Assembly (NCBI GenBank): GCA_905233895.1
Contig: CAJOFL010000002.1
Span: 1 to 64,000, forward strand
DNA length: 64,000 nucleotides
Source: an uncultured Bacteroidales bacterium
GTDB taxonomy: Bacteria; Bacteroidota; Bacteroidia; Bacteroidales; P3
Reading direction: 5' to 3'
This document shows, in pieces, positions 6,332 through 45,281 of this stretch. How positions within the stretch are numbered: position 1 is the stretch's first letter; each line of letters starts with the position of its first letter. The notes beneath the pieces were generated by a model that was given only the letters and a program-made list of their open reading frames with translations, was not told where the DNA came from and made no database searches. The translations under genes were made by a program, and so were the position numbers.

Positions 6332-6621
6332 TGAAACACTATTATTCTAGCTTTGATCATATAGGTGATGAATGCTAAAAAAGTGACGAAGAAAACCACA
6401 ATAAGAGTCTTTACCACCCGTAAATGTTCGCGCCCCTTGGCATAGTGGCGTAGCACCAGTATCAGAGGAATGAACATCCCGCCGAACCAGCGTATGTGTG
6501 AACCTATAGGCTCTCCGGCGATAAGCAGTACTACGGCGAGTACAATAATAAATCCAAATTCCGAACAGAGACCGGCAACCAATCCTGTCAGTATCTTGTC
6601 TTGGGCAAAGAATTTTTTCAT
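6328..6621 (-). CDS. Small membrane protein, conserved hypothetical
   Basis: Three hydrophobic segments; overlaps neighbours at start and stop within an lpxB-surE operon. Confidence 0.7.
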   Translation of the reverse strand: MKKFFAQDKILTGLVAGLCSEFGFIIVLAVVLLIAGEPIGSHIRWFGGMFIPLILVLRHYAKGREHLRVVKTLIVVFFVTFLAFITYMIKARIIVFQ

Positions 6622-7379: not shown

Positions 7380-8452
7380 CGGGCGAAGAGTGATTTGTCG
7401 TGCCCTAGGAAGTAACTGACGGGTTGCAGTATGCGGTCAAACACGAAGTATTGTATCAGCACGGTGTCCTTGCTGTCGATTATAGCATATAGGCGGTCTA
7501 GGTCGAAGGTGTTGTACATTGCCGTGTCGGGCATTGCCTCATAGTCGTCGGGGTTGGTGTATTTGATGTAGGTGCGCACCTCTGTCTGTCGGCCTGCAGT
7601 ATCGGTGATTGTAAGCACGGCACGAGGGGCGACTTGTAACGAACTGTCATTTGCGTTTGGTACAATGGCGGCAAACTCATCGAAGTTGAGCCATGCAAAC
7701 GATGAGAGTAACTGAGCTACGCGCACGGTGTCAAATTGTGGTACAGGCTTGCCGGTGACCGCAGGAATGAGGTCGAATCCGTCGCCGTTGTTGCGCACGG
7801 AAAAACTTTCTTCGGGCATGGCCGGTATCTGCATGTTGATTTCGTCTATGGCATTCACGTCTAGGTCAACGATGGTGTGGCTGCGCCATTTAAGAGGTTC
7901 GGTAACGAAGCGAGGGGTGAGGAATCCGCGGAATCCTGGAATATAAATTACGTAGGGCACTTTGTCGCCCTCACGCCACATGAATGAGGCCATCATGTCT
8001 TGAGTCTCTCGGCCAACATAGTAGGTCACTAACTTCTTTTCGTGCATAAACAAATGCAGGCCGAAGATGTTGATACGCGGCGCACGGCCGTAGACTTCCA
8101 CCTTTATGGCACGTGCCGAGATGTCCTTGATAACGTTGGGGATGGCGTTGCGGTTCACCTGTTGGCGGATTTGCATGGTATGCAGTGTCTCTAGCAGCAG
8201 GTCAATCATTGGTTGGTTTGCAGGGTAATGCATGTTGTCGCATACGACAGTCCACAACGAGTCGGCGTCGCGTTCAAGCAGTGTCTCGTTGCCCTGTTTG
8301 TCGGCCAGATAGATACGGTCAACGGCGGCGATGTTCTCTATGTTGTAGTCTTGGTCGAAAGTGGCCTTCTTGTGCCCTTGCAGTGCAACAATCAGTGCAA
8401 CTATCCCTATTACGGCTACTGCCGCAATGATTATCAAGTTCTTTTTGTTCAT
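7376..8452 (-). CDS. DUF4340-like protein, coupled to GldF/G-type ABC gene
   Basis: N-terminal TM anchor, repeated extracytoplasmic domain; position directly after the GldF-GldG fusion. Confidence 0.6.
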   Translation of the reverse strand: MNKKNLIIIAAVAVIGIVALIVALQGHKKATFDQDYNIENIAAVDRIYLADKQGNETLLERDADSLWTVVCDNMHYPANQPMIDLLLETLHTMQIRQQVNRNAIPNVIKDISARAIKVEVYGRAPRINIFGLHLFMHEKKLVTYYVGRETQDMMASFMWREGDKVPYVIYIPGFRGFLTPRFVTEPLKWRSHTIVDLDVNAIDEINMQIPAMPEESFSVRNNGDGFDLIPAVTGKPVPQFDTVRVAQLLSSFAWLNFDEFAAIVPNANDSSLQVAPRAVLTITDTAGRQTEVRTYIKYTNPDDYEAMPDTAMYNTFDLDRLYAIIDSKDTVLIQYFVFDRILQPVSYFLGHDKSLFAR

Positions 8453-10920: not shown

Positions 10921-10935
10921 GGTTTCGTTTGGTGG

Positions 10936-12463
10936 TTATTCCTGTCGTAGGGCACGGCTCTGGGGGCTACGGCCTTGGTAGAGGCCTTCTCCGATTTCTG
11001 CCACGGTCTCGACTATTAGTGTGGTAGCGATGCCGAGGATGCGGGTGTCGATATTCTCCCAGATGTCGGTGGTTACATGGTTGTGGTGCATGCCATTTTG
11101 TGTGGTGAACATGAGGCTTGGCACCCCGATAGCCTCGAAGGCGCGGGCGTCGCCGCGAGCGAGAGTCTTTTTCCCGTCTTGTCCAGATGATAGTAGGCTT
11201 GTAGGTCTTCAGAATGAAGAGAAGTCTCTCACTTGGAAGAGTACCGCCCCAGATACATAAAGCACCGAGATTCTGTGCGCCGATGAAGGCTTCGACTTGG
11301 CGTAGTTTTGGGAAGTCGGCCACGAACTGGCGTGAGCCGAGGTACTGCTGTTCGCTTCCGCTGAAGAGCACGAAGGCAATACTGCGGTGGGGGCGGTAGT
11401 CGGGATGGGAGAGGAGTCGTGCCACTTCGAGCACGGCGGCCACGCCCGAGGCATTTATGTCGGCACTGGGGAAGAGGCAGGTCTCGCCCTGTATGCCGAG
11501 TCCGTCGATACTGGCTCCAACTACGATGATTTCATTCTTCAACCTTGGGTCGTTGCCCTCGAGTATACCCACCACGTTGGCTGTCGGGGCCTGGGGGCGG
11601 TAGCGGGCGTTGATGTCTACTTCGGCTTTCTTGAGCAGTGCGAACGAGTTGACTTGGCCGGCGTTGATGGTTACTATGGCGCTGTCGAGTTCTTTGGCTT
11701 CTCCGTGGAATATCTCGCGGCCACAGTCGAGGGTGAGTTGCAGCACTGGGAATGTGGGCATGTGGGGCAGTTCGCCGCAGTAGACGCGACCTTGGGGCTC
11801 CCAGCTCTCGCAGGTGCGGCTGGTGTTTATGACGAGCATACCGATTGCGCCGTGGCGTTCGGCGGCACGGGCTTTGTCGCGCAGCGAGGTGTAAAGGGCG
11901 GCCACGCGTTCAGGCATCCGGTGTCCTTCGGGCAGACCCGTAAGTACCACGGCAATCTTTCCTTTGGCGTCGACAAATTGGTATTCGTTGAACAGTGCGT
12001 TATCGATGCCGTAGCCGCAGAAGACCATTTGGGCGTCGACATATCCGCGACCGGTCATGCCGGCGCAGCAGAACTCGTTACCCAGGGTGTATACGCGTTT
12101 CTCCTTGCTGCCAGGGATGTACGTGTTGAACTTGGCGTTTTCCACCTCATTGCATTCGAGGTTGAACGGCTCGCGCCAGGGTTTCTCGCGGTCGGCATGG
12201 CGGCGTCCGAACTCCTCCTTGACGGGCTGTACGCCGTAGTTGGCCAGCACCCGCTCGACATAGCGCATGGCGCGTTCGTGACCTTGGCTGCCGGCCAGAC
12301 GACCTTCGTATGTGTCGGACGACAGTTCGATGATGTGCTTCATCACCGAGTCGATGTTCACCGTCGGCATCGGAATCGTGTCGCGTTCCTGTGCCTGGAC
12401 GGTGGGAACTGCCAGTATCACGGCTATGGCTGCCAGCAGGGTGAGTTTCTTGTTTTTAGACAT
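10936..12463 (-). pseudogene. M28-family aminopeptidase-like protein, reading frame disrupted near the C-terminus
   Basis: Frame 10967..12463 is peptidase-like to about SEQQYLGSRQFVADFPKLRQVEAFIGAQNLGALCIWGG, then turns into basic nonsense; another frame carries the expected tail LARGDARAFEAIGVPSLMFTTQNGMHHNHVTTDIWENIDTRIL down to 10936. Real frameshift or assembly error. Confidence 0.7.
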
Positions 12464-12591
12464 AATACTAAATATTTATATCTGTTCAACTTATTGATTA
12501 CTAATAAAGTATGCACAACCACACAATATGTGCAGTTGTGCAAATGTACGAAAAAAATCGATATGTCGGAAAAATAGTTTTTCGCGACGCT

Positions 12592-13572
12592 TTACCAGCG
12601 GGCGGTGAAGATGCAGTGCTTGTGCCAGGCGCAGTGTTCGACGGAGTATTCTGTCGTGTGGCATTTGCTGGCAGCCTCGGACATGCGCTCCATGCGGTCG
12701 TAGCATTTCTTGCCGCCTGTCACGCCGCCGCTTACCTTGAGTGTGATATGCTTGCCGTCGGCAGTGCATTCCTTATGCTTGAAGCCCAGTTCTGAAGCCA
12801 GGCTGTCGAGGTGGCTGTACTCGGCATAGCGCTCGTCGTAGGTGAGGGCGTTGGCCACAGCCAGTGCCTCTTCCAGAGCCTGTTCCGCCTCTTCTGCTGC
12901 TTGTTCTGCCTCTTCTGCGGCCATCATTGCTTCGTCGTCTTGATTGTCACTGAAAATGTTCACAAATTTGTTACGTAAGTTCTTGTTCCGTTCAAGTTGT
13001 ACGCTGTCGGTTGCGGCAAGACCGTCAATCACCGTTGAATCGAGCGCCAAAGCGCAAAAGATCATCTGCTGGATGCTGGTCTCGGCCAGAGGGTCTTTCG
13101 ACCAGCGAGCCTTGCCGTAAAGGTAGAGCTTTGCCGGGCGCATGACGCTGTCGATACCGAAGCGGAAGGTGAGAACACTGTCGGTGGTGGCGATGCTGTC
13201 GATATGGATGAAATTGCTGTCGGCGATGGTAAGGGTCAACGCATCGTCCGAGATGCGGTTAAGCACCATCGGTATCTCGGGGTTTGAGAGGCTAAACTCG
13301 CCGCCGCTGCTTCTCCAGTCGCTCGGGTAGCCAGTCACAATGTAGCGCATTGCGAAGCAGTTCTTGTGTCCGTAACGGCGGTAGAGCACATACTGCGTGT
13401 CGGCGTCAGGAATCACGAGGGCGGCGTCGCACCCCAGTGCCTCGGCCCACTCGCCTACGCTCTCGGCCGAGGTTGGGTAGGTCATAAGGTCTTTAATCTG
13501 GCGCTTGATGTCGCCGCAGGCGGTGGCCATGACGGCCACCGCCGCGATTATGATTAGGACTCTTGCTTTCAT
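12592..13572 (-). CDS. Lipoprotein with coiled-coil EEAEQAAEEAEQ segment, unknown function
   Basis: Lipobox-like ATACGD; last gene of the GntR/ABC operon. Confidence 0.65.
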   Translation of the reverse strand: MKARVLIIIAAVAVMATACGDIKRQIKDLMTYPTSAESVGEWAEALGCDAALVIPDADTQYVLYRRYGHKNCFAMRYIVTGYPSDWRSSGGEFSLSNPEIPMVLNRISDDALTLTIADSNFIHIDSIATTDSVLTFRFGIDSVMRPAKLYLYGKARWSKDPLAETSIQQMIFCALALDSTVIDGLAATDSVQLERNKNLRNKFVNIFSDNQDDEAMMAAEEAEQAAEEAEQALEEALAVANALTYDERYAEYSHLDSLASELGFKHKECTADGKHITLKVSGGVTGGKKCYDRMERMSEAASKCHTTEYSVEHCAWHKHCIFTARW

Positions 13573-13916
13573 TTCTCGTTCTGTTTTAGTTCGTCGAAAC
13601 TGATGCCCAGCAACTGCATCTTCTGCCGTATGATTGGAAGCTCCTCTTCGAGGAATTCCTTGCGCTGCAAGGCCATGATGCGTTCTTTTGCGTCGGGAGC
13701 CACAAAATAGCCGACACCGCGACGGTTATAGATGATTTCCTCATTCTGGAGGTAGTCGAAGGTGCGCATCACCGTATTGGGGTTCACGCCCATCGAGGCG
13801 GCCACGTCGCGCACGCTCGGCATGCGGTCGTCTACTGCCAGCTGGCCGGCGAGTACCTGCTCCATAAGCCTCTCGGCTATCTGGAGGTATATCGGTTTCT
13901 GTTTTCTGAATTCCAT
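13569..13916 (-). CDS. GntR-family transcriptional regulator (YtrA-like, short C-terminal domain)
   Basis: MEFRKQKPIYLQIAERLMEQVLAGQLAVDDRMPSVRDVAASMGVNPNTVMRTFDYLQNEEIIYNRRGVGYFV: wHTH of GntR type; start placed at 13916 rather than the track start 14120. Confidence 0.9.
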   Translation of the reverse strand: MEFRKQKPIYLQIAERLMEQVLAGQLAVDDRMPSVRDVAASMGVNPNTVMRTFDYLQNEEIIYNRRGVGYFVAPDAKERIMALQRKEFLEEELPIIRQKMQLLGISFDELKQNEK

Positions 13917-13930
13917 AGTTTCTCCATTCT

Positions 13931-14653
13931 TTATTTCAGTTCGCGGATGCTCAGTTTGATGCCAACGCCGTCGGCTTCCACCTTGCAGCGGCCGTCGCCT
14001 ACGATGGTCTTCTCGCCCTCCTTGCGCGAGGGCAGGTCGCACGAGAGGAAAGGCTTTATGCCCGACATCTCGATGCTCAGGCCCGCCGTCTCGGGCACCA
14101 CATGGAGCGCCAGCAGACACTGGACGCCGTCGATATCAATCTCGTTAGGCAGGGCGTCTGGGTAGTCGGCATTGACACTGACCTTCACGCCGTCCACCGT
14201 CAACTCGCGGCTCAGCACCTGCCCGACAGTCACTCCTGTCTCAACGCCGTCGATACTAATCTCATCAAGTACTTTGCCACGCGGCACCTCGATTACAAGG
14301 TGCTTGCGGATGTTCTTCAAATCACCGTAGCGGTACTTGCCGTGGCCGCAGTATTGTATTTCCAGTTCGCCCTCCTCGTCCACATAGTAGCGCATCCGCA
14401 ACGAGTCGGTCAGCGGGAGGAAGCCCTCCTGCATCTCTTCATGGATACGCACCGCGGAGTCGTCGGTGTAGACAATCTCCATGTCGCCGAAGAGCCAGTC
14501 GACACTGATGCCGCTGATGGGCTGATTCAGCGTGGCGTCGCCGACGCTATAGCGCTCGGGGTGTTCGTACTTGATATCAATCTTTGTGTTCTCGCCGCAG
14601 GCGGCCAGCAGCATGGTGGCCATGACGGCTATTATAAATGCTATACGTTTCAT
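13931..14653 (-). CDS. Lipoprotein with adhesin-like beta-helical domain (DUF4097/DUF2807-like)
   Basis: Signal/lipobox MLLAACGE; repeated ISIDGVETGVTV/LTVDGVKVSVNAD/EIDIDGVQ pattern. Confidence 0.55.
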   Translation of the reverse strand: MKRIAFIIAVMATMLLAACGENTKIDIKYEHPERYSVGDATLNQPISGISVDWLFGDMEIVYTDDSAVRIHEEMQEGFLPLTDSLRMRYYVDEEGELEIQYCGHGKYRYGDLKNIRKHLVIEVPRGKVLDEISIDGVETGVTVGQVLSRELTVDGVKVSVNADYPDALPNEIDIDGVQCLLALHVVPETAGLSIEMSGIKPFLSCDLPSRKEGEKTIVGDGRCKVEADGVGIKLSIRELK

Positions 14654-14689
14654 AACTCTTATGTTTTTTTGTTCTTGAGTCTGACTTAA

Positions 14690-15535
14690 TTAATACGGCA
14701 TCTTCTTCAGTCGGCGCCAGCTGAGCCATCCGAAGAGGACTATCAGCAGCACGTTGAAGCCGATGCAGATGCCGAAGAGCCAGTTGGTGAAATCCACCTC
14801 GCTGTAGCGTTCGGGCAGCTGCATGAACCATTCCATGAAGTCGGTGTTGCCGAAAGCGTAGATCATCACCGGCATGAGGATGATGCTCAAGGCGAACTCA
14901 ATGACATAGAGCCAGAGGATGGTCTGCAGCACCTTGTGCTTCTTGAAGAGTGTGGCGGTGAACATGAACATCAGCACCGTGGCGATATATCCCAGCCAGC
15001 AGCCGAGCGTCCAGAGGTTGCCGAAGTTGGCGAACATTTCGGCGCCTTCTTCTTCTAAGGCCAGATTCTCGAAGAACGACATGTTGAAGGTGAAGGGGAA
15101 TCCGCCCTCACACTGCCATATCCACTGGTGGTAGTGGCCGAAGGGCAGGATGGTGAGGAATATGTCGAGCACCATGCTGCCGAGATATACTGCCAGGGGG
15201 CAGATAATCAGCGAGTAGAGCATTGCGCTAGTGAACTTCTCCAGTTTCGATGCGGGGAGCATGGCGTAGTAGATGCCTTCGTTGCGAAGGTTCCACGTGC
15301 GGTACATGCGCGAGGGGGCCATGATGGCGGCCAGGTAGGCCGCGCCTTCAATCATCAGCAGGCGTATGTCGGGCGGCATCGAGACATCGCTGCCGGCAAT
15401 GACGGCCATGAAGAGCCACACCGCGAAGGGCAGCACGGCCAGGATAAGCATCGTGTGGCCAAACATCGGCCACATATTGCGAAAGTCTTTGTTGACGACT
15501 TTGCAGAAACGGTTCCAATCGAATTTATTATTCAT
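14690..15535 (-). CDS. ABC-2-type membrane protein (paralogue of next gene)
   Basis: Multiple TM segments; MNNKFDWNRFCKVVNKDFR...YYAMLPASKLEKFTSAMLYSLIICPLAVYL; next to ABC ATPase. Confidence 0.7.
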   Translation of the reverse strand: MNNKFDWNRFCKVVNKDFRNMWPMFGHTMLILAVLPFAVWLFMAVIAGSDVSMPPDIRLLMIEGAAYLAAIMAPSRMYRTWNLRNEGIYYAMLPASKLEKFTSAMLYSLIICPLAVYLGSMVLDIFLTILPFGHYHQWIWQCEGGFPFTFNMSFFENLALEEEGAEMFANFGNLWTLGCWLGYIATVLMFMFTATLFKKHKVLQTILWLYVIEFALSIILMPVMIYAFGNTDFMEWFMQLPERYSEVDFTNWLFGICIGFNVLLIVLFGWLSWRRLKKMPY

Positions 15536-15549
15536 AGTTGTTTTGGTTT

Positions 15550-16269
15550 TTAATAACTCATTTTATTCATTTTGTTCCAGCCGAGGAATCCCAGGAGGAT
15601 TGCCAACAGGACTTGTGCGGTGACTATGACCCACATGGCGAGTTTGTTTTCCACCTCCATGAATATTATCACTCCGCCGTACATGCTTGCTAACAGCCAG
15701 AACCAGAGCAGGAAGCACAGCGCTGTGCGCCAGCCTTTGCTGCGTATGGCGTTGGCATAGATGAAGCCCAGGGTGGGACCAACGAAAGCCACCACGCAGT
15801 TGCACAGCATCGGGAGGTTGAGATACTGCCCTATGCCGGCCTGCCACATGTACTTGTGGTAGAATGGCATGTGCACCGCGGTGAGCAGGGTGTCGATCGC
15901 CACATTGTAGGTTATCATCGCCAATGGCGCTATGACCAGCGAGAGCAACGCAATCGAGAGGTACTTCTCCCACTTGCTGGCGGGCAGCATGGCGAAGTAG
16001 ATGTCGCCCCGCTTATGCTTGCGCCCCACATTGGCATAAAGCTGCATGGGTATCAGCGAAGACATGGCGAGCGACATGCCGCCAGCCATTACTAGGCGGT
16101 AGCCGGCACCGCAATCCTGGCCAGTCACTCCGCTGAACAGCACCATTACCGGCACGAACCACAGCATGAATATCAGCGATGCGCCAAATGTGCTGAAACG
16201 CGGCGAGCAATGCCGCACGTCGTGCCACACCAGTTTGCCGAAGCGATGAATGTCAAACGAGTTATTCAT
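15550..16269 (-). CDS. ABC-2-type membrane protein
   Basis: Multiple TM segments; MNNSFDIHRFGKLVWHDVRH...YFAMLPASKWEKYLSIALLSLVIAPLAM, matching its neighbour. Confidence 0.7.
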   Translation of the reverse strand: MNNSFDIHRFGKLVWHDVRHCSPRFSTFGASLIFMLWFVPVMVLFSGVTGQDCGAGYRLVMAGGMSLAMSSLIPMQLYANVGRKHKRGDIYFAMLPASKWEKYLSIALLSLVIAPLAMITYNVAIDTLLTAVHMPFYHKYMWQAGIGQYLNLPMLCNCVVAFVGPTLGFIYANAIRSKGWRTALCFLLWFWLLASMYGGVIIFMEVENKLAMWVIVTAQVLLAILLGFLGWNKMNKMSY

Positions 16270-16301
16270 TTGTCTTAACTCCTTAACTACTGTCTCCTTA
16301 A

Positions 16302-17129
16302 CTACTTAAATAGTTCCTTTATGATGTTCTTGTTGCGCAGCACGGCGTTGAAGAGGGCTTCGATGTTGATCTGACTCTCCTCACCGGTGGTATTGGGTAT
16401 CACGTTCATGTAGCCTGCCGGCATCAGCTCGCTGTAGAGCGCATCGGGACGCTCCTCACCGCCATACTCGAAGAAGAGCTTCTCCTGTATGCGCTGCACC
16501 GGGGCGTCGAGCAGCACGGCGTTGTGCGAGAGGATGACGATGGGGTCGATAAGGTTTTCTACATCCTTCACCTGGTGGGTGGAGATGATGATGGTCTTGC
16601 CCTCGTCGGCTATCTTGCTCAGTATGGAGCGGAACTGGGCCTTGCTGGGGATGTCGAGACCGTTGGTGGGTTCGTCGAGCAGGATATACTCGGTGCCGAG
16701 CGAGAGGCTGGCGGCAATGAGGCTCTTCTTCTGCTGTCCGAAGCTCATCTCCTTGAACTTGCGGGCGGGTTCCACCTCCAGCTCCTGCATCAGGTGGAGG
16801 AAGGTGCCTTCGGAGTAGTTGGGGTAGAAGGGGGCCAGTTCGTTGACATACTGTTGCGGGGTGGCGTTGTCGGGCAGGGTCACCTCGTCGGGGAGGAAGA
16901 TGATGCTCTGAAGCATTTCCGGCAGGCGGTCATGGCTGGTCATACCGTCGACGGTGCAGGTGCCGTTCCCCGGACGCTGAAGGCCGCAGATTATTTTCAG
17001 CAGGGTGGTCTTGCCCACTCCGTTCTCGCCCAGCAGGCCGTAGATGGCACCTTTCGGGAACGAGAGGTTGATGTTGTTGAAGACCGGAGTCTTCTTGTAA
17101 CTGAAGTCTAGGTTCTTGATTTCGATCAT
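16302..17129 (-). CDS. ABC transporter ATP-binding protein
   Basis: Walker A GLLGENGVGKTTLLK, signature MSFGQQKKSLIAASL, Walker B YILLDEPTNGLD. Confidence 0.93.
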   Translation of the reverse strand: MIEIKNLDFSYKKTPVFNNINLSFPKGAIYGLLGENGVGKTTLLKIICGLQRPGNGTCTVDGMTSHDRLPEMLQSIIFLPDEVTLPDNATPQQYVNELAPFYPNYSEGTFLHLMQELEVEPARKFKEMSFGQQKKSLIAASLSLGTEYILLDEPTNGLDIPSKAQFRSILSKIADEGKTIIISTHQVKDVENLIDPIVILSHNAVLLDAPVQRIQEKLFFEYGGEERPDALYSELMPAGYMNVIPNTTGEESQINIEALFNAVLRNKNIIKELFK

Positions 17130-17144
17130 AAGGCTTTCGTTTTA

Positions 17145-17459
17145 TTAATTCTTATACCTGATTGCTGTTCCGAACACGAGCACCTCGGCGGCTTGCGCCA
17201 TAATGCTGTTGGTGGTGTAGCGTACACCGATGATTGCGTCGGCTCCGAGACGGACGGCCTCGTCGATCATGCGCTGGGTGGCTTTGTTGCGGGCTTTGTT
17301 CATCATCTCGGTGTAGCTGCCCAGCTCGCCGCCCACGATGCTCTTCAGGCTCTGCCCGAAGTCGCTGACGAAGTTCTTGCTCTGGATGGTGCTACCGCTT
17401 ACGATGCCCATCTCTTCATACCTTTCACCCTGAAGGGTGTCAACTGTTACGATTTTCAT
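17145..17459 (-). CDS. YbjQ/UPF0145-family heavy-metal-binding-domain protein
   Basis: GSTIQSKNFVSDFGQSLKSIVGGELGSYTEMMNKARNKATQRMIDEAVRLGADAIIGVRY. Confidence 0.9.
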   Translation of the reverse strand: MKIVTVDTLQGERYEEMGIVSGSTIQSKNFVSDFGQSLKSIVGGELGSYTEMMNKARNKATQRMIDEAVRLGADAIIGVRYTTNSIMAQAAEVLVFGTAIRYKN

Positions 17460-17486
17460 GTTGTTTGATATTTGATTGTTAATTAT

Positions 17487-19928
17487 TTACATTTTGGGTG
17501 TGCTGCCGGAATCGGTGGAACCCTGGCGGGCCTTGCTCTCCAGCTCCATCTTGCCTATACGCCAGGTGAGACCGAGACTTACGAACTGCGAGTTGAAAAG
17601 GTTCGTGCCGGTGGTCTGGTACTGCGGGGCGGTGGTGTTGCTGCCCCATTTGCTCCAGCCGAAGATGTCGCTGACGTTCAGGTAGACGGTAAGTTTGCGG
17701 TCGAAGAAGTCGCTGCTGGCGCCGAAGTCGAAGCGCTTGTTGGCGTTGGTGAGGCTGTAGAGACCCAAGCGCGGTGAGCTGTAGCTGCCGTTGGCAAAGA
17801 GTTCCAGCCGGTTCCATACTTTGGCCCAGAGGTTGACCCGGAAGCTGTAGCTGAGTTTGCTGTCGCTGAAGTCGTTGTAGTTGTAGCCGTAGTTGAACAG
17901 AGAGGCGTTGAAGCGCACGTTGAAGAAGCCTGAGGGGCGGTAGGTGATGTTGGCCTCGATGCCCTCGGTGTGCGAGGAACCGATATTGTCTGAAAAGGTG
18001 TAGTTGACCATATAGGGGCCGATGATTGGATCAATATCGGCGGCGGTCATAGTGCCTATCTCGTTTGTGTTGGCGCGGAAGTAGGCGTTGAGGCCGATGT
18101 TTCCAAAGCCCATGACGTATTTGTTGAAGGCGGCCTCGAGGTTGTGGGTGTAGCACATCAGCAGGTTGGGGTTACCCGTACTATAGCTGAAGTCTTCATA
18201 AATGCGGAAGGGCAGGTAACTGCTGAGGTCGCCGTCGTGCGAGAAGCGGCGTGTGTAGCTGAGGCTGTAGCTCTCGAAGGTCTTGGTCTGGTAGCTGAGG
18301 TGGATGCTGGGTACAAGGCCGGAGAAGAGGGTGTCGAGGCGCTGGCGGTCGCCGACGGCGGGGTGCTCGATCATGCCACTCTTGAAGTTGTTGTTGTAAC
18401 GCAGGCCCAGCTTGGTGGTGAAGCCGCCCCAACGCTTCTGGGCGGTCACATAGACGTTGGGTTCGAAGGCGGTGCCGTTCGAAACATACGACTGATAGGG
18501 CATATTGTTCCAGTCGCCCGAAGGCAGCAGGCTGTCGCGGATCTCGCTGTTGCGGCTGTAACCATAGCCCAATTCGGTGCCGGCCTCGATGGTGATGTCG
18601 TGCTTCAGCGGCAGGGTGTAGTTCACGCCCAGTTCGCCGCTTCCGTTGAACATGTCGCCCACCATGTGGCGGCGGAAGTCGGTGAGGGAGGCGGAGTTGT
18701 AGTCTCGGTTGTAGTCGGAGTAGCCACCGTTGGCCCAGTAGTTGCCGTTGAAGGTTACGCTCAGCTTGCGGCCGGTGGTGTCGTAGCGGTGCTCGAACCA
18801 GGCACCGGCGTAGGCACCATGACTGAAGCCGTTGTTGAGGGTGGTGTCGAGATAGCCGAAGTCGCGGCGCGTGGGCTGGTACTCAATCCATCCGCTGTTG
18901 CCGAAGAACGAATTCTGGTCCCAATAGGGGTAAGCTCCCATCCAAGCCGAAAGGGTGGTCTTGTCGTCAATCTGCCAGTTGGTGTTGAACCCGAGGTAAC
19001 CGCCTTGATAGGGCATCTTGTTCACGTTGTCGTACGACATGAAGCGACTTGTGTCGCCGTTGTCGTCGAAGAGGGTAGAGGTGCCGTTATTGACCATGTC
19101 GTGGTTGCCGAGATAGCCGCCGAGGTAGATGTTGAAGTCGACCTTCTCGTTGGCCCACACGTAGGAGAGCCAAGGACCCAAAGCAGGAGTGGTTGCACCT
19201 TTCACGCCGATGCAGAGCAGCTCGTTGCGCGTAATCTTCTGATTGGTTACAATATTTATAACGCCGCCGCTGGTCGAATAGCGGGCCGAGGGGTTGGTGA
19301 TGACCTCGATACGTTCTATAGCGTTGGCGGGCAGGGTCTTGATATACTGTTTGAGGGCCTCCTCGTTCATGTGCGACGGGCGGTCGTTGATCCAAATCTC
19401 GACGCTCGACACGCCGCGGAGGGTGATGTTGCCTTCGGCGTCGACCTCAACGCCGGGAGCGTTCTGCAAAGCGTCGCTTGCGGTACCCGTCTGGATTGAT
19501 GGGTCTTCTTTTGTGTTGTACATATTTTTCTCGCCATCCATGGCGTAGAGGGGCTTCTGCTCGACTACGGTTACTTCGTCGAGGATGGCGCCGCGCTGGA
19601 GCTTGATTCCGAGTTGCACCGTCGGTTCGTTGACCGCAAGGAATTCGTGGTGAGGTTGGTAGCCCACGAACGAGGCTTGCAGTAGGTAGCGGCCGGTGTC
19701 GACGTCGGCGATGGCGAAGAAGCCTTGGTCGTTGGTGGTGGCTCCGCGCATGAACACCGTATCGGCCGGACGCATGAGGGCTACGTTGACGAATGGCATC
19801 GCCTCGCCGCTCTCGGCATCGGTCACCTGCCCCACAACATACGATTTTTGGGCATTCACTGCACCGCTGAAGGTGAAAATCGCGAGCATCGCGACCATTG
19901 TTATTTTCTTTAATGTGTTGTGTATCAT
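17487..19928 (-). CDS. Outer-membrane beta-barrel receptor with carboxypeptidase-regulatory-like domain and plug
   Basis: N-terminal SYVVGQVTDAESGEAMPFVNVAL, plug-like ALQNAPGVEVDAEGNITLRGVSSVEIWINDRPS, long aromatic-rich barrel. Confidence 0.9.
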   Translation of the reverse strand: MIHNTLKKITMVAMLAIFTFSGAVNAQKSYVVGQVTDAESGEAMPFVNVALMRPADTVFMRGATTNDQGFFAIADVDTGRYLLQASFVGYQPHHEFLAVNEPTVQLGIKLQRGAILDEVTVVEQKPLYAMDGEKNMYNTKEDPSIQTGTASDALQNAPGVEVDAEGNITLRGVSSVEIWINDRPSHMNEEALKQYIKTLPANAIERIEVITNPSARYSTSGGVINIVTNQKITRNELLCIGVKGATTPALGPWLSYVWANEKVDFNIYLGGYLGNHDMVNNGTSTLFDDNGDTSRFMSYDNVNKMPYQGGYLGFNTNWQIDDKTTLSAWMGAYPYWDQNSFFGNSGWIEYQPTRRDFGYLDTTLNNGFSHGAYAGAWFEHRYDTTGRKLSVTFNGNYWANGGYSDYNRDYNSASLTDFRRHMVGDMFNGSGELGVNYTLPLKHDITIEAGTELGYGYSRNSEIRDSLLPSGDWNNMPYQSYVSNGTAFEPNVYVTAQKRWGGFTTKLGLRYNNNFKSGMIEHPAVGDRQRLDTLFSGLVPSIHLSYQTKTFESYSLSYTRRFSHDGDLSSYLPFRIYEDFSYSTGNPNLLMCYTHNLEAAFNKYVMGFGNIGLNAYFRANTNEIGTMTAADIDPIIGPYMVNYTFSDNIGSSHTEGIEANITYRPSGFFNVRFNASLFNYGYNYNDFSDSKLSYSFRVNLWAKVWNRLELFANGSYSSPRLGLYSLTNANKRFDFGASSDFFDRKLTVYLNVSDIFGWSKWGSNTTAPQYQTTGTNLFNSQFVSLGLTWRIGKMELESKARQGSTDSGSTPKM

Positions 19929-19950
19929 GATGATATTTTGTTTTTGTTCG

Positions 19951-19974
19951 AGTGTATTAGTTTACTAGTACACT
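19951..19974. promoter_or_regulatory. 24-bp near-palindrome AGTGTATTAGTTTACTAGTACACT, candidate GntR/YtrA-type operator
   Basis: Outer arms AGTGTA/TACACT are perfect; 20 of 24 positions symmetrical; lies between a -7 box (19976..19983) and the start of the first operon gene. Confidence 0.6.
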
Positions 19975-19975
19975 G

Positions 19976-19983
19976 CAAAGGTA
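19976..19983 (-). promoter_or_regulatory. Bacteroidota-type -7 box TACCTTTG
   Basis: CAAAGGTA on + reads TACCTTTG on -, upstream of the 17487..19928 gene. Confidence 0.5.
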
Positions 19984-20074
19984 ATACATTTTTTGATACT
20001 GACAAAATTTTTTTCATTTTTTTCAAAATTTTTTTCGTGAGGTCATTTTTTTTATGATAAAAATGGGGGGTGTA

Positions 20075-38551: not shown

Positions 38552-40030
38552 TTATTGTTTTGATGTGTCGTTTTTCTTATCTTTGCGGACGAAAAAGAGG
38601 ATGCCCAGTGCTAGGGTGATAGCGGCGGAAATGGCGTAGCCAGCAGGGCGGGGGAGTAAGCTCCCGAGCCCCTCTTTGTAGGCAACAAGGAGGAAACTGA
38701 CGGTCACCATGCTCATGAAGAGGGCCGGGATAAGAGTAATCCAGTACCAGCCGCCTTTCTTCAGGCGGGCGAGGAAAACTGTGACGGCCCACAACGTTAC
38801 CATAGCAAGCACTTGGTTGGCCCATGAGAAATAGCGCCAGATATAGTCGAAACCGGCGGGGTTGGCCAGCGAGAATACCAGCAGGGCGGCAGCCAGCACA
38901 AAGACAGGCAGTGCCACCAGCAGTCGCTTGGGTACGGGCTTCTGGTCTACATGCATAAAGTCGGCCACAATAAGGCGTGCCGACCGTAGGGCGGTATCGC
39001 CGCTGGTGACAGCTGCGCTTACCACACCGAGAATGGTAATGAAGGCTATGACGGGCGGGAACCAGCTGTTGGCTATCACTCCCACCATCGCGGCGCCGCT
39101 CTTACCGAGGCACAGTTCCGGATGGTCGTGGAAGAAATAGGCTGCAGCGGCAGCCCAGATGAGGGCCACAACGCCTTCGGCAATCATTGCGCCATAGAAG
39201 ATGGGTCGAGCCTGCTTCTCGTTCACCATGCAGCGCGCCATAAGAGGCGACTGTGTGGCGTGGAATCCGCTGATGGCGCCACAGGCAATCGAGATGAACA
39301 TCATCGGGAAGATGGGGTTTGTATCGGCTTTCGGGTGGCTGTTCTCCAAGCCTTCCCACACCTCGCGAAGGGGCACCTGATAGACTACAAAGGCAACAAC
39401 AATGGCCAGCGCCATAGCCAGCAACAGGATTCCGAACACAGGGTATATCTTGCCTATAATCTTGTCAATGGGCAGCAGGGTGGCCAGCAGGTAGTAGACG
39501 AAAATGAGTATCACCCAGAAGTATTGGATGACATTGTGGTCGATATGGCGCAACCCCTCGGGAACGAAGATGTCCTGGGTGAGTAGGGTGGCGGGGGTGT
39601 TGACAAACACTGCTCCCACTAGAATCATAAGCACCACGGTGAATCCGCGCATGAACTGCTTCATACCGTTGCCCAGATAGCGTCCGTGGATTTCAGGCAG
39701 CGAGGCGCCGTCCTGACGGATGGAAATGAAGCCAGCGATGAAGTCGTGCACTGCGCCGGCGAATATACATCCAAACACAATCCAGAGGTACGAGGCGGTT
39801 CCGAACTGAGCCCCCATCACGGCGCCAATAATTGGGCCAACACCCGCGATGTTGAGAAACTGGATGAGGAAGATGCGCCACGGTTTCATCGGTACATAGT
39901 CCACCCCATCGGGGTGCGCTACTGCCGGCGTCACACGTTGCGGGTCGACTCCTATCACACGCTCTATTAGTTTCGAGTACAGCCAGTAACCTAGCACCAG
40001 CAGTACGATAGCGATAATAAAAGATACCAT
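38552..40030 (-). CDS. cstA: Carbon starvation protein CstA family
   Basis: GVDYVPMKPWRIFLIQFLNIAGVGPIIGAVMGAQFGTASYLWIVFGCIFAGAVHDF, FHATQSPLMARC. Confidence 0.93.
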   Translation of the reverse strand: MVSFIIAIVLLVLGYWLYSKLIERVIGVDPQRVTPAVAHPDGVDYVPMKPWRIFLIQFLNIAGVGPIIGAVMGAQFGTASYLWIVFGCIFAGAVHDFIAGFISIRQDGASLPEIHGRYLGNGMKQFMRGFTVVLMILVGAVFVNTPATLLTQDIFVPEGLRHIDHNVIQYFWVILIFVYYLLATLLPIDKIIGKIYPVFGILLLAMALAIVVAFVVYQVPLREVWEGLENSHPKADTNPIFPMMFISIACGAISGFHATQSPLMARCMVNEKQARPIFYGAMIAEGVVALIWAAAAAYFFHDHPELCLGKSGAAMVGVIANSWFPPVIAFITILGVVSAAVTSGDTALRSARLIVADFMHVDQKPVPKRLLVALPVFVLAAALLVFSLANPAGFDYIWRYFSWANQVLAMVTLWAVTVFLARLKKGGWYWITLIPALFMSMVTVSFLLVAYKEGLGSLLPRPAGYAISAAITLALGILFFVRKDKKNDTSKQ

Positions 40031-40055: not shown

Positions 40056-42611
40056 TCATTTCTCACGGTCTGCAACCAAAACAGCCAACCGCGACAACGC
40101 TTCCTCTGCAAACTCTTCTGCACGTTCGCCGAACAGGATCCTGGCCCACGCCATATCTATCTCGCGCAGTCTCGGTTGGCGGAGATTTATAAACTCGTTG
40201 ATTGGAGTGGCAGTTATTATTGCCCGCTGTTCATTTGTCAATTGGTTGGTGATGGGAACATGCAATGTCTCATAGTCTTCCTTCTCCAGTTTTCGCAATC
40301 CTTTTCGATTGTTGCCATAGGCTTCGCATTCTAGTTGGTAGAATACGGAGGCGAACCACGATGCCAGCAATCTGGCTCGTTCCTTATCGGCTTGGATTAC
40401 GAAGAAATTGGTCGACACATAGGTTGGTTTCTCGGTAATAAACACTCGTCCGTTGCTTCGAATCATTCTTGGAAGCAACACGCAGTCTGCAGGAGAGATA
40501 TGCCCAGATTCCATTTTCAGAGTTTTGATATATTCCTGCATTGATTTGTTGTCTTGCCGTTGTTTCTTACCTTTGGAATTCTCGGACTGCATTATTTCTT
40601 TGACATGGTTTTCAATCTCGCTGTCATCCATTCCAGCCACATTCACAAATAATGAATCCCCGTCGCCTATGAATAAGTCTTTATATTTGGCGTTGTTAAC
40701 CCCAGGGGCGGTATGCCCTTTCAAAGAGTCCTTAATTGTAAGTGTGGAATCAGGCTTCAAGAAGAGCAATTTCGTACATCCGCTGTTTCCTACTTTCCCG
40801 CGCAAATAGCTGTACTCACTTCCTTTCAGTGTTGCTAGGCATTTCGCAGTATTCAAGTTGTACTTGATGAAATTCTGTGCTGATTCCCTTGTCATATTGC
40901 CGATATGCCATCCAGATGCAATTGTGTCCTGAAGTTCCTTCACGGGTATCAATGCACCTTCAAACTGCTGGTTGATATTTTCAAGTCCGCTTCGGCTAAA
41001 GTTCGAGTTCAGTGCTTCTTTGATTGAGACTGTATCAATTTCAGAAAGTATCTCATTGCTGTATAGGTAGCGTATGTTTTCTGGATGAGAACCCTTTATT
41101 CCGATAAGGACAGAGGTGTTTTGTGCTACATCTTCAAACAGGTTTTCTTGCGGATATGTGAAAATCATCTGCAGACCAAAATCGTCCAGCAGCATTCTTC
41201 GGATAGCGACGCTGGCGTCACCGCGCGTTGTTAAGTGGGTGTTCGGTATGATTGTGGCTATAATTGTATCCTCTTTTGCTAAAGCAGACACCAGTTCCAC
41301 AAAAGGTCCTTCCAGCGGCATCTGGCCGCCTATTGTTGTTGGCTCGGACTTTTTTGCACTACGAATCCTTTGGTACAGTTTTGCTTTCCGTTCAGTGCAG
41401 TAGACACCCACTGCCGACAAATATGGGGGATTCATCACTATAATCCTGACATTGTCAAAGCTCGAGGCTGGCATGTCGGCAATGTTCATTGCTGTGATAC
41501 TGGCAGTGTTGTTCTTTTCAACCGTCGAAGCGAACTTTAGTCCAATGCGGAGCGATAGCAATTGTAGTAGTTTGTCATTGATGTCGTTGGCTACTATCTG
41601 TGATGGAGTAATATTGTTGAATACGTTCAGCGCGGCACAAATCAAACTGCCGCTTCCTGCGGCGGGATCCATAATCTTTTCGTTGGCACCGAGTTCACCT
41701 GTCACACTCTTTACAATCCACATTATGGCATTTGCAAGCTCGGTGTCGGTAGGTACCTCACCCTCGTGCCGATGTCTCTCCGAAATAACACGGTGCATGA
41801 TATTGGCTAGTTCGTCGGCATCCACATATGTTCTGCCCAGTTCGTATAGTTGGTTGAGGAGGACCTTGCTCGTATGTATATTGCGGTCGTCGGTGTCAGA
41901 AGACTGCGAGAATATGTCAGAAAAGTTGATTTTCAGAGCCTCTCGGCATACAAGGTCGACCTTGTTGGATAGTTTTGATATGGTTCTCAGACCTTTGCGG
42001 TTGATTTTTGAGAACGAGCCACGGATATACTCGTAGAAAAGTCCTGCCAGTGTCTTGTTCCATTCTGACTTGCTGTCCTTCCTGTCCTGTATTTCGTCGA
42101 CAAAACTTTTGAATGTGAGCAGGTAACGGCCGCTGTCATTGATTATTGTCGTCAACAAGTGGGCATAATGGGCGGTCAAGTCTGCCATAAAGGTCGTCTT
42201 GTCAACTTCATGGAACCGGTGGGTCATTGTAATGCCCGGTTCGATAATCTGTTCGTAAACGTTGGGCCGCCCCTGATCGTATTTGAACAAGCAGGAACTC
42301 TCCAGATTGGTCAATATGTAGTATTTGCTTTCCAGTTCGGCATCGCGCATGGACTGTACATAACTCATTGCCTGAAACTGGTAGCGTGTGCTGTTGACTG
42401 CGGCAACGGTACGCTTGACTTCAACCACACACAATATCTTGTTGGTGGCTTTGTTCGCGACAACTACATCCATTTCGATAGTGCCTACATGCCTGTGGTG
42501 CTGAACCTCATAGATATTTTCGAGATGTAACTTCTGCAAAGCCCCTTCGAAGGCTTCGATGCATACTGGGTGAAATCGCTCAACTTCTTTGTCTGTATTA
42601 GTCAGCCACAT
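40056..42611 (-). CDS. N6-adenine DNA methyltransferase with possible N-terminal PD-(D/E)XK nuclease motif (type IIG/IIL- or I-like)
   Basis: N-term EMDVVVANKATNKILCVVEVKRT; motif I IMDPAAGSGSLICAAL; motif IV IVMNPPYLSAVG; C-terminal TRD-like region. Confidence 0.8.
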   Translation of the reverse strand: MWLTNTDKEVERFHPVCIEAFEGALQKLHLENIYEVQHHRHVGTIEMDVVVANKATNKILCVVEVKRTVAAVNSTRYQFQAMSYVQSMRDAELESKYYILTNLESSCLFKYDQGRPNVYEQIIEPGITMTHRFHEVDKTTFMADLTAHYAHLLTTIINDSGRYLLTFKSFVDEIQDRKDSKSEWNKTLAGLFYEYIRGSFSKINRKGLRTISKLSNKVDLVCREALKINFSDIFSQSSDTDDRNIHTSKVLLNQLYELGRTYVDADELANIMHRVISERHRHEGEVPTDTELANAIMWIVKSVTGELGANEKIMDPAAGSGSLICAALNVFNNITPSQIVANDINDKLLQLLSLRIGLKFASTVEKNNTASITAMNIADMPASSFDNVRIIVMNPPYLSAVGVYCTERKAKLYQRIRSAKKSEPTTIGGQMPLEGPFVELVSALAKEDTIIATIIPNTHLTTRGDASVAIRRMLLDDFGLQMIFTYPQENLFEDVAQNTSVLIGIKGSHPENIRYLYSNEILSEIDTVSIKEALNSNFSRSGLENINQQFEGALIPVKELQDTIASGWHIGNMTRESAQNFIKYNLNTAKCLATLKGSEYSYLRGKVGNSGCTKLLFLKPDSTLTIKDSLKGHTAPGVNNAKYKDLFIGDGDSLFVNVAGMDDSEIENHVKEIMQSENSKGKKQRQDNKSMQEYIKTLKMESGHISPADCVLLPRMIRSNGRVFITEKPTYVSTNFFVIQADKERARLLASWFASVFYQLECEAYGNNRKGLRKLEKEDYETLHVPITNQLTNEQRAIITATPINEFINLRQPRLREIDMAWARILFGERAEEFAEEALSRLAVLVADREK

Positions 42612-42612
42612 A

Positions 42613-43635
42613 TCATTTGAGATATTCTTTCAGTTTTGATGCCAGTACATAAGCCAGTTTAGGTGGTACGGCATTCCCCACTATCAAGTTTTTACCCTGT
42701 TTGGATGTTGATACAAACTCATAGTTGTCGGGGAAGGTCTGCAGGCGCATTGCTTCCCTTAAGGTTATTATACGGTCGTACTTGTAGTGGATGTTGCATC
42801 CGACATTAGGCCGGTTGAAGTAGGTGTTAATCGTGTATGCAGGCTTGTCGTGCCGCATGCGGCCGTAGCAGGTTGTATGGCCGCCTTCTCGTTTCAGACG
42901 TCGTATCCTTGCTGACGGAACGTCGTCGGGGATGTCCATATAGTTGCCCCCAGGTTTGACATGGGCGCAGATGTATTTGTCCAGCTGGCTCATCGTGGGA
43001 TATTCGTGTTCTGTCACCATCTCTGAAGTGCCAACTTCGGGCAAATCGCCTATGGCACTCTCCACGCAAACATACTTGTGTTTGCCATTGGCTCCGTCTT
43101 CTGAATGTGTTGTTTCCGGGAATACAAATTTGCCTTTCTTTAATCCAACGATAATCACGCGTTTCCTTAATTGCGGAATGCCGTACTCGGCTGCGTTTAC
43201 CAGTTTCCAGGTGACGTTGTATCCAATCTTGCCGAATGCTTTCAGTAATTTATCTATAATCTTGTTGCCTTTACTGTCCTTAGCCGACAAAAGCCCTATT
43301 ACGTTCTCGAACAGGAATGCTTTTGGGGATAGTTTTTTGATTATATCCAGATAGCGCCATACAAGTTGGCCACGGGCGTCGTCACACTGCCTTTTGCCGG
43401 CAAGGGAGAACGATTGGCACGGAGGTCCACCGATTACCACGTCGGCATGTGGGATTATGTTTATGTCGACAGCCATGAGGTCACCACAAAATATCTCATC
43501 GCCTACATTTTTTTTGTAGGTGTTGACGGCATCCTTATTGTTGTCGATGGCCCATATAATATCATAACCGGCTTGCTTGAAGCCGAGGTCGAGACCGCCA
43601 CCTCCTGAGAATAGACTGACAACCTTATTTCCCAT
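42613..43635 (-). CDS. C5-cytosine DNA methyltransferase
   Basis: VVSLFSGGGGLDLGFKQAGYD, GGPPCQSFSLAGKR, ENVIGLL, LRKRVIIVGL, GNAVPPKLAYVLA: complete motif set. Confidence 0.95.
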   Translation of the reverse strand: MGNKVVSLFSGGGGLDLGFKQAGYDIIWAIDNNKDAVNTYKKNVGDEIFCGDLMAVDINIIPHADVVIGGPPCQSFSLAGKRQCDDARGQLVWRYLDIIKKLSPKAFLFENVIGLLSAKDSKGNKIIDKLLKAFGKIGYNVTWKLVNAAEYGIPQLRKRVIIVGLKKGKFVFPETTHSEDGANGKHKYVCVESAIGDLPEVGTSEMVTEHEYPTMSQLDKYICAHVKPGGNYMDIPDDVPSARIRRLKREGGHTTCYGRMRHDKPAYTINTYFNRPNVGCNIHYKYDRIITLREAMRLQTFPDNYEFVSTSKQGKNLIVGNAVPPKLAYVLASKLKEYLK

Positions 43636-45070
43636 AGCCGTTGAGACGTTTGTTTTTCAGGTTATCGTATTGTTTGCGGACATTGCGAGTGCCGAAATAT
43701 GGATAGAGCAGGTCGGATATTCGGTCTATGGCCGTTGTGTCAGAGGTGGCGATAAGTTCTTGGGCCATCGACACAAGCAGGCTTTGGTCGTCTTGATTGA
43801 TGGATTCAATGGCCGGTATTACAATGTCGTCCAAATCATACTTTTGGATTTTGAGAACACCGCTGCCATAAGTCTTTCCGCAACGTTCCAGCTGAGCATA
43901 TACATGATAGTTGTTAAGTAGGGCGAAAAGTAGCAAGGGATTGTGTTTGGATGTTATCATGTAGAAGTTGTCACGCACATTACGCTTGCCGTCGTTCAGG
44001 ATGAACCGTATGTTCTTCCGCACGATATATGGGAACACAATCTGTGCAGCATCAGGCACTGGGATTAGATACCATGTATCGTTGCGTTCAATCATTCTCT
44101 TCAATGCCTTTGGTCTCCCCTGCTTTACGATTTCTGCGGCGCAGTTCTGTAGGTAATCACGTTCCTCGTTGTTCAGCCGACATGTCTTGGAAAGGGCTAA
44201 CAGTTTGTCTGTCTTGCAATGCTTAGTGGAATAACCGTTGATATTCCTTGGCGATGATACTATTCCCGCAAGATGGCATTGTGATATTAACGGCGGGTTG
44301 ACAAATATCCTGTTTGCCCCAGTGGTAATCCCGCGCCGTATTGTCGCTATAGATTTGAGCTGCACAAGGCCTTTGGAATGTTTTGTTTTAGGTTTGCGAT
44401 TCCCCTTGACCGATAGAGTATCACCGTCAATATACAGATGCTTGTATGCGGGAGTCTTGTGCAATCCTTTAACAAACTTTAGTATACATACATCCACCAT
44501 TGGAGAGCCTTCGAAGGGGTTGCCTTTGATTTCAATGAAGTCGGTAATGCTTCCGTTGTGATGCAACTGCTCCTGGAACTGGCGTCCGACTGGGGTATTG
44601 ACCCATGTGTTGGGGAAGATGGCTATCAGCTCGCCTTCGTCGCGAAGCAGCGTGACGGCCTTGAGAATGAAGTATATGTAAAGGTTAGCACGGCCAGATA
44701 CTGACATCTTTCCTTGGTTGCATACAGCTTGTAGCTTCTTTTTTGTGACTCCCAGTGGTGCAAGTGCGTCAATTTCTTCGTGGCGCACATAAGGCGGATT
44801 CATTATAATGCCGTCGTAGTGCTTCTCTATGTCGAAGAAATCCTCATGACGCAAAGTGCAGCGTTTGGAGTTTGGGTTGGCAAAATGGCGAAACGACGCT
44901 CTGTCTATTTCCACGCCATCCACGATGAAGCCAGTATTTGCAAGAAGGCTTTCCACGAAAACGCCGTGCCCGAAACATGGGTCAAGTACACGCGAATGGC
45001 CGGACAGGGAGAACAGGCTCACCATAAAGTCGGCGACGATTCTTTTCGTATATACTTGACCCAGGTTCAT
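43625..45070 (-). CDS. N6-adenine DNA methyltransferase (Eco57I/PstI-like)
   Basis: MNLGQVYTKRIVADFMVSLF, RVLDPCFGHGVFVESL, IIMNPPYVRHEEID. Confidence 0.92.
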   Translation of the reverse strand: MNLGQVYTKRIVADFMVSLFSLSGHSRVLDPCFGHGVFVESLLANTGFIVDGVEIDRASFRHFANPNSKRCTLRHEDFFDIEKHYDGIIMNPPYVRHEEIDALAPLGVTKKKLQAVCNQGKMSVSGRANLYIYFILKAVTLLRDEGELIAIFPNTWVNTPVGRQFQEQLHHNGSITDFIEIKGNPFEGSPMVDVCILKFVKGLHKTPAYKHLYIDGDTLSVKGNRKPKTKHSKGLVQLKSIATIRRGITTGANRIFVNPPLISQCHLAGIVSSPRNINGYSTKHCKTDKLLALSKTCRLNNEERDYLQNCAAEIVKQGRPKALKRMIERNDTWYLIPVPDAAQIVFPYIVRKNIRFILNDGKRNVRDNFYMITSKHNPLLLFALLNNYHVYAQLERCGKTYGSGVLKIQKYDLDDIVIPAIESINQDDQSLLVSMAQELIATSDTTAIDRISDLLYPYFGTRNVRKQYDNLKNKRLNGYGK

Positions 45071-45077
45071 CGGCTGG

Positions 45078-45281
45078 TTATTGCTGGAGGCGGTTGTCCT
45101 CGGGGGCGGCGATCCAGATAATGAGGTAGGCCCAAAAGCCTAGGCTACCGCAGATAAGGGCGATAAGGAAGAGGATGCGGATGACGGTGGGGTCGACGTT
45201 GAGGTATTTGGCGACACCGCCGCAGACGCCGGCAATCTTGCGGTCGGTGATGCTGCGCGTCAGGCGTTTGTAACTTTCCAT
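45078..45281 (-). CDS. PspC-domain protein
   Basis: KRLTRSITDRKIAGVCGGVAKYLNVDPTVIRILFLIALICGSLGFWAYLIIWIAAPE. Confidence 0.93.
   Translation of the reverse strand: MESYKRLTRSITDRKIAGVCGGVAKYLNVDPTVIRILFLIALICGSLGFWAYLIIWIAAPEDNRLQQ

What the first reader, a model, noticed from the sequence alone, without database searches (positions are those of the whole stretch)
40056..45070. Three-methyltransferase cluster with a possible nuclease fused to one of them and no separate restriction gene
Seen: three minus-strand genes packed head to tail (N6-A MTase, 10-nt overlap with a C5 MTase, then 1 nt to an 851-aa protein). All carry intact catalytic motifs. The 851-aa protein has an N-terminal EMD-x13-EVK pattern resembling PD-(D/E)XK nucleases, then DPAAGSGSL/NPPY and a TRD-like end. 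Known: type IIG/IIL enzymes fuse nuclease, MTase and TRD; DISARM also has MTases but needs helicase/PLD genes, absent here. Inference: an R-M or anti-phage island combining two adenine and one cytosine specificities, possibly with the fusion protein as sole cutter. The stretch looks more AT-rich than its flanks (cstA and pspC), fitting horizontal acquisition.
Basis: partly seen in the sequence, partly recalled or inferred. Interest (0 to 1): 0.62.

Follow-up and report, generated by a model that had tools for sequence, protein, structure and literature searches.

The report
BpuSI-type restriction-modification operon
This is a three-gene bacterial DNA-defence operon of an already known kind (the BpuSI type, cutting near GGGAC), and its host genome has purged roughly two thirds or more of its GGGAC sites, a footprint that a published survey did not find for this class of enzyme.

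Summary
The three genes are real and intact. The 851-aa protein is an end-to-end relative of the crystallised Type IIG enzyme RM.BpuSI (PDB 3s1s, E=1e-143): nuclease, helical connector, gamma-class N6-A methyltransferase, BpuSI-type recognition domain. The other two genes match the two companion methyltransferases of BpuSI and BspLU11III (m6A on GGGAC, m5C on GTCCC), so the island most likely has one specificity, not three. The same N6A-C5-RM order recurs on an Enterococcus plasmid, a Tenericutes plasmid and in rumen Bacteroidales with unrelated flanks; three relatives show pspC-cstA joined without it. New member of a known kind.

Unexpected: GGGAC, predicted from BpuSI, is the most depleted of all 512 5-mers in the host (98 seen, 311 expected; Karlin ratio 0.37, next 0.73), but normal in nine same-genus relatives without the system (0.99-1.23). 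The deamination product is not enriched, and AT-rich islands elsewhere still carry GGGAC. This supports GGGAC as target and long residence with an active nuclease. A published survey reported avoidance for 0 of 107 Type IIC/G site-genome pairs, so this looks like an exception, plausibly because BpuSI-type systems rely on separate methyltransferases.

The parts
43625..45070 (-). N6-adenine DNA methyltransferase, 481 aa, M1.BpuSI-like companion (own C-terminal TRD-like half)
   Evidence: Pfam Eco57I 3e-16; M.TaqI in PDB 3e-11; same position in E. faecium and Tenericutes operons, 38-41% identical
42613..43635 (-). C5-cytosine DNA methyltransferase, 340 aa, M2.BpuSI-like companion
   Evidence: Pfam DNA_methylase 1e-75; M.HaeIII in PDB 1e-42; 63-69% identical to E. 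faecium/Tenericutes copies in motifs I-VIII, and 72-80% over residues 216-275
40056..42611 (-). BpuSI-type bifunctional Type IIG restriction-modification enzyme (REase - helical - N6A MTase - TRD), 851 aa
   Evidence: Pfam BpuSI_N 3e-41 and BpuSI_TRD 1e-37; PADLOC REase_MTase_IIG 1e-134; PDB 3s1s 1.3e-143 over residues 7-849
42159..42611 (-). N-terminal PD-(D/E)XK nuclease domain; D48, E64, K66 aligned with D60, E76, K78 of BpuSI and invariant in the seven aligned proteins
40107..40802 (-). C-terminal BpuSI-type target recognition domain (residues 604-835)
   Evidence: PF22008 1.4e-37; 29% identical to BpuSI over residues 604-851
45078..45281 (-). upstream neighbour in transcription order: pspC-like 67-aa ORF, 7 nt before the first MTase; edge of the insertion (not part of the system)
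   Evidence: pspC directly precedes cstA in G087, G073, G083
38552..40030 (-). cstA-like gene, 25 nt downstream of the operon; other edge of the insertion (not part of the system)

Best explanation
A complete BpuSI-type (Type IIS/C/G) restriction-modification operon. RM (851 aa) binds one asymmetric site, most likely GGGAC, cuts beside it with its PD-(D/E)XK domain when the site is unmodified, and can weakly methylate it. The 481-aa enzyme puts m6A on the GGGAC strand and the 340-aa enzyme puts m5C on the GTCCC strand, so that host DNA is protected on both strands. Shown here: homology, domain order, catalytic residues, operon order and recurrence, insertion between pspC and cstA, depletion of GGGAC across the sampled genome. 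Inferred from BpuSI/BspLU11III biochemistry: which base each enzyme methylates, the cleavage position (10/14), stimulation by SAM. Inferred from the depletion: the system has been resident for long in this lineage and its nuclease has been active enough to select against its own site.
For: End-to-end match to RM.BpuSI, PDB 3s1s, 1.3e-143; BpuSI_N and BpuSI_TRD families; D/E/K aligned and invariant. BpuSI consists of RM plus M1 (m6A, top strand) and M2 (m5C, bottom strand GTCCC), recognises GGGAC 10/14, and needs both MTases in vivo (PMC3817140); BspLU11III GGGAC 10/14 has two separate M genes (PMC3039593). Same gene order in an E. faecium plasmid whose RM RefSeq calls 'BpuSI family type II restriction endonuclease', a Tenericutes plasmid and four rumen Bacteroidales; among three of these, DNA similarity is confined to the operon. 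GGGAC is rank 1 of 512 depleted 5-mers in the window (8 vs 37) and in 400 kb from elsewhere in the genome (90 vs 274); Kr 0.37 overall; nine relatives without the system 0.99-1.23. Only one BpuSI_N gene in the genome.
Against: RM identity to BpuSI in the recognition domain is only 29%, so GGGAC rests on the genomic footprint, not on sequence. M1 and M2 of BpuSI themselves were not available for direct comparison. Other carriers show little or no GGGAC depletion (G023 Kr 1.00, G603 0.97, G601 0.86, G602 0.95, Tenericutes plasmid 0.99; E. faecium plasmid 0.71); recent arrival would explain this but is not shown.
Confidence: 0.9

Rival explanations
1. BpuSI-type system whose specificity has drifted away from GGGAC; the depletion of GGGAC has another cause.
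For: TRD 29% identical to BpuSI; Type IIG enzymes in general change specificity easily (discussed in PMC4687349).
Against: GGGAC was predicted from BpuSI before counting and came out first of 512 words in the window and again in 400 kb from elsewhere in the genome, with no depletion in nine relatives. The C5 MTase region 216-275 is 72-85% identical across phyla, and three proteins would have to change together.
Confidence: 0.06
2. GGGAC loss is mutational, by deamination of the m5C laid down by the C5 methyltransferase (GTCCC to GTTCC), and says nothing about a working nuclease.
For: m5C deaminates faster than C (established knowledge); M2.BpuSI methylates the first C of GTCCC (PMC3817140). 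GGAAC per Mb is higher in this genome than in pooled relatives, 1.45x.
Against: The product GGAAC is not enriched once composition is allowed for (Kr 1.05 against 0.92-1.06 in relatives; the neighbour GGTAC, not a deamination product, is raised as much, 1.43x). At aligned positions where relatives have GGGAC this genome has GGGGC 18, GGCAC 12, GGGAC 11, GGGCC 8, GGGAT 7, GGAAC only 5, i.e. loss at several positions of the word.
Confidence: 0.1
3. The GGGAC footprint is the trace of an older, different GGGAC-specific system, and this operon is a recent arrival (its G+C is still low).
For: Operon 46.5% G+C against 55-58% in its neighbours; traces of lost systems are known (PMC4687349).
Against: It needs two independent systems of the same specificity. 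No second BpuSI-like gene in the genome. The operon itself holds no GGGAC (0 seen, 4.2 expected), whereas two AT-rich islands elsewhere keep many. Low G+C is common in defence genes and is no clock.
Confidence: 0.12
4. A new kind of island combining three specificities, or a DISARM/BREX/MADS-like multi-gene system.
For: PADLOC lists weak or partial matches to mad2, DrmM and PglX models.
Against: These are generic methyltransferase-domain matches far below REase_MTase_IIG (1e-134); the neighbours are not helicase, PLD or PglZ genes, and the cassette moves as exactly these three genes.
Confidence: 0.02

Closest known systems
BpuSI R-M system (RM.BpuSI, PDB 3s1s, GGGAC 10/14)
   Same: RM domain order and catalytic residues; two companion MTases, one N6A and one C5; GGGAC is the purged site in this host
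   Different: 29-44% identical in the main domains; host is a Bacteroidales bacterium; cleavage and methylation not tested; M1/M2.BpuSI sequences not compared directly
BspLU11III R-M system (Bacillus sp. LU11, GGGAC 10/14, two separate M genes)
   Same: three-enzyme composition and presumed target (PMC3039593, PMC3817140)
   Different: sequence not available here, so not compared
BpuSI-family operons on Enterococcus faecium plasmid NZ_CP011829 and Tenericutes bacterium MO-XQ plasmid CP017949
   Same: N6A - C5 - RM order; 38-41% (N6A), 63-69% (C5, motifs I-VIII) and 36-44% (RM nuclease and MTase domains) identity
   Different: E. faecium copy has a small HTH gene in front, absent here; both are on plasmids
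Rumen Bacteroidales copies (G023/JAEEMK010000056, JAFUUL010000026, JAFRRN010000100, JAFROT010000013)
   Same: same order, 57-80% protein identity
   Different: unrelated flanking genes; GGGAC not or barely depleted in those genomes; one copy has a stop in the nuclease domain
Eco57I / MmeI-type single-chain Type IIG enzymes
   Same: nuclease, gamma-MTase and TRD in one chain
   Different: Eco57I has one companion MTase, MmeI none (PMC4081073)

Membership tests
BpuSI-type IIS/C/G restriction-modification system | One chain with N-terminal PD-(D/E)XK domain, helical connector, gamma-class N6A MTase, C-terminal BpuSI TRD | tested here: met
BpuSI-type IIS/C/G restriction-modification system | Nuclease catalytic D, E, K and MTase DPAxGSG / NPPY conserved | tested here: met
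   D48, E64, K66 aligned with D60, E76, K78 of BpuSI and invariant in the seven aligned proteins; DPAAGSGS and NPPY aligned. That D60/E76/K78 are the catalytic residues of BpuSI is from memory
BpuSI-type IIS/C/G restriction-modification system | Two companion MTases, one N6A, one C5 | tested here: met
   definition from PMC3817140
BpuSI-type IIS/C/G restriction-modification system | Recognition of GGGAC | tested here: inconclusive
   Indirect: GGGAC is the most depleted 5-mer in this host and normal in relatives without the system; no biochemistry
BpuSI-type IIS/C/G restriction-modification system | Cleavage 10/14 outside the site, stimulated by SAM | not testable with these tools
   needs purified enzyme
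BpuSI-type IIS/C/G restriction-modification system | m6A on GGGAC and m5C on GTCCC by the companions | not testable with these tools
   needs long-read or bisulfite methylome
DISARM / BREX / MADS | Helicase (drmA), PLD (drmC), pglZ/brxC or other mad genes next to the MTase | tested here: not met
   neighbours are pspC, dcp and cstA; conserved cassette has only three genes
Type IIL (MmeI-like) | Single chain, no separate MTase | tested here: not met
   two separate MTases in the conserved operon

The most novel reading that the evidence does not exclude
A Type IIG restriction enzyme can purge its own recognition site from its host genome as strongly as classical Type II systems do, because in BpuSI-type operons protection depends on two separate methyltransferases, whose separate recognition domains also lock the specificity. 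That would make BpuSI-type systems a natural test of why Type IIG sites are otherwise not avoided.
Probability: 0.65. Interest if true: 0.55.

Novelty: new member of a known kind. Interest (0 to 1): 0.45.

Why it matters
The footprint is the part worth a second look. A survey of thousands of genomes found under-representation for 0 of 107 Type IIC/G site-genome pairs and proposed two reasons: nuclease and methylase are coupled, and specificity changes fast (PMC4687349). A BpuSI-type system removes both conditions, since its companion methyltransferases act separately and each must recognise the site on its own. Here the site is depleted to Kr 0.37, far below that survey's 0.78 threshold (0.926 for non-palindromes). 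This makes the proposed reasons directly testable, and the residual GGGAC density can mark recently imported islands in this genome.

Tried and rejected
Viral contigs: no relative found. Phage records: only a partial, unannotated fragment in Streptococcus phage phi-SsUD.1. The original BpuSI structure paper (PMC3185434) is not held, so BpuSI facts come from the 2013 paper and reviews. Searching by family around the Enterococcus record was not possible. DISARM, BREX, MADS and Type IIL were considered and rejected (membership table). Deamination as the cause of GGGAC loss was tested and found insufficient. Structure prediction was not run: a solved relative covers nearly the whole RM chain.

Full report
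Observation. The three minus-strand genes are present as described: 45070-43625 (481 aa), 43635-42613 (340 aa), 42611-40056 (851 aa). The first two overlap by 11 nt, the last two are 1 nt apart. The operon has 46.5% G+C and GC3 0.52-0.54; its neighbours cstA, pspC and dcp have 56-58% and GC3 0.69-0.79.

What the 851-aa protein is. [quoted passage not shown] D48, E64 and K66 align with D60, E76 and K78 of BpuSI and are invariant in the seven aligned proteins; I recall these as the BpuSI catalytic residues, but the structure paper was not available.

What the two other genes are. The published BpuSI system consists of RM.BpuSI and two methyltransferases: M1 methylates the adenine of GGGAC, M2 the first cytosine of GTCCC; RM's own methylation is 4-6 fold weaker than M1's, and RM clones were unstable without M1, so both companions are needed (PMC3817140). 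BspLU11III, same target, likewise has two separate M genes (PMC3039593). The window has exactly this set: an N6A enzyme and a C5 enzyme. The simplest reading is one recognition site protected on two strands, not three specificities.

Recurrence. The same order N6A-C5-RM occurs on an Enterococcus faecium plasmid, where RefSeq names the last gene 'BpuSI family type II restriction endonuclease', on a Tenericutes plasmid, and in four rumen Bacteroidales. Among L005, L006 and L007 DNA identity of about 84-85% begins and ends with the operon while the flanks differ, so the three genes travel as one cassette. It is rare: 2 of 190 genomes of the family, the window's own included, and 2 of 120 of the genus by the C5 gene. 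In three same-genus relatives (G087, G073, G083) a pspC gene ends within about ten bases of the cstA start codon, i.e. the site without the operon; no target duplication was seen.

Genome footprint. BpuSI predicts GGGAC. Counted afterwards outside the operon, GGGAC is the most depleted of all 512 five-letter words (both strands pooled) in the window: 8 against about 37 expected by a maximal-order Markov model. The test was repeated on 400 kb from elsewhere in the same genome: 90 against 274, again rank 1. By Karlin's ratio (Kr) the whole sample gives 0.37, the next word 0.73; nine same-genus relatives without the operon give 0.99-1.23. The depletion is seen in all flanking contexts, and GGGAC is 0.22 times as frequent as in pooled relatives, the next-lowest word being 0.52. 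All fifteen single-letter neighbours are normal (Kr 0.99-1.20).

Cause of the footprint. Loss by deamination of m5C would turn GTCCC into GTTCC (GGAAC on the other strand), but GGAAC is not in excess (Kr 1.05; relatives 0.92-1.06), and positions with GGGAC in relatives have become GGGGC, GGCAC, GGGCC or GGGAT more often than GGAAC. Two of twenty 20-kb pieces of the genome carry 14 and 16 sites where the others have 0-7; both hold AT-rich islands with defence-like genes (YhcG/DUF1016, DUF4007), as expected of recent imports not yet purged. The operon itself has none (4.2 expected). Selection against a site that is now and then cut is the best explanation, which implies a nuclease active over a long residence. 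This is inference.

Other carriers. G023 (Kr 1.00), G603 (0.97), G602 (0.95, nuclease frame broken), G601 (0.86) and the Tenericutes plasmid (0.99) show little or no depletion; the E. faecium plasmid shows 0.71, rank 2. Recent acquisition would explain this, in line with published work on residence time (PMC4687349), but it was not tested here.

Why this is of interest. A survey of thousands of genomes found avoidance for 47.9% of classical Type II site-genome pairs but 0 of 107 Type IIC/G pairs (PMC4687349), and proposed coupled activities and fast change of specificity as reasons. BpuSI-type systems have uncoupled protection and three recognition parts that must change together, so they should behave like classical systems. 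This genome does.

Verdict. The finding is real. The system is a new member of a known kind. Its host's GGGAC footprint is unusual and testable.

Noticed in passing
L111 (G000:C8:1-20000), about 6000-20000: Partly AT-rich stretch of the same genome with 16 GGGAC sites: DUF4007, a large protein without Pfam match, a DUF1016/YhcG nuclease, a protein resembling PAPS reductase by eye, and a protein with two HATPase domains; looks like a second, more recent defence island.
   Followed up: partly
L110 (G000:C7:1-20000), about 4000-17000: Another AT-rich island, with 14 GGGAC sites in the 20-kb piece: DUF1016/YhcG nuclease, an HD-associated (dGTPase-like) protein, AAA_14/DUF4143 protein.
   Followed up: partly
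L006:8001-10568 (G602:C94): BpuSI-like gene of a goat-omasum genome is interrupted by a stop after 88 codons, inside the nuclease domain, while both methyltransferases are open; may be a restriction-dead system or an assembly error. Intact copies exist.
   Followed up: no
L010:5001-5846 (Streptococcus phage phi-SsUD.1, FN997652.1:12506-13351): Unannotated fragment of a BpuSI-like RM gene (query residues 433-720, 28% identity) close to tet(W).
   Followed up: no
L088-L092 (G036:C19:1-100000): In this relative GATCC/GGATC is absent from 100 kb and CGATC is at 0.28 of expectation, perhaps the mark of another R-M system.
   Followed up: no
G000:C9:46639-47568 and G000:C34:7036-7998: Two further C5 methyltransferase genes in the window's genome, possible other R-M systems.
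   Followed up: no
L009:5143-5334: The E. faecium copy has a small helix-turn-helix gene just before the operon, possibly a controller protein; the window copy starts 7 nt after pspC and has none.
   Followed up: no
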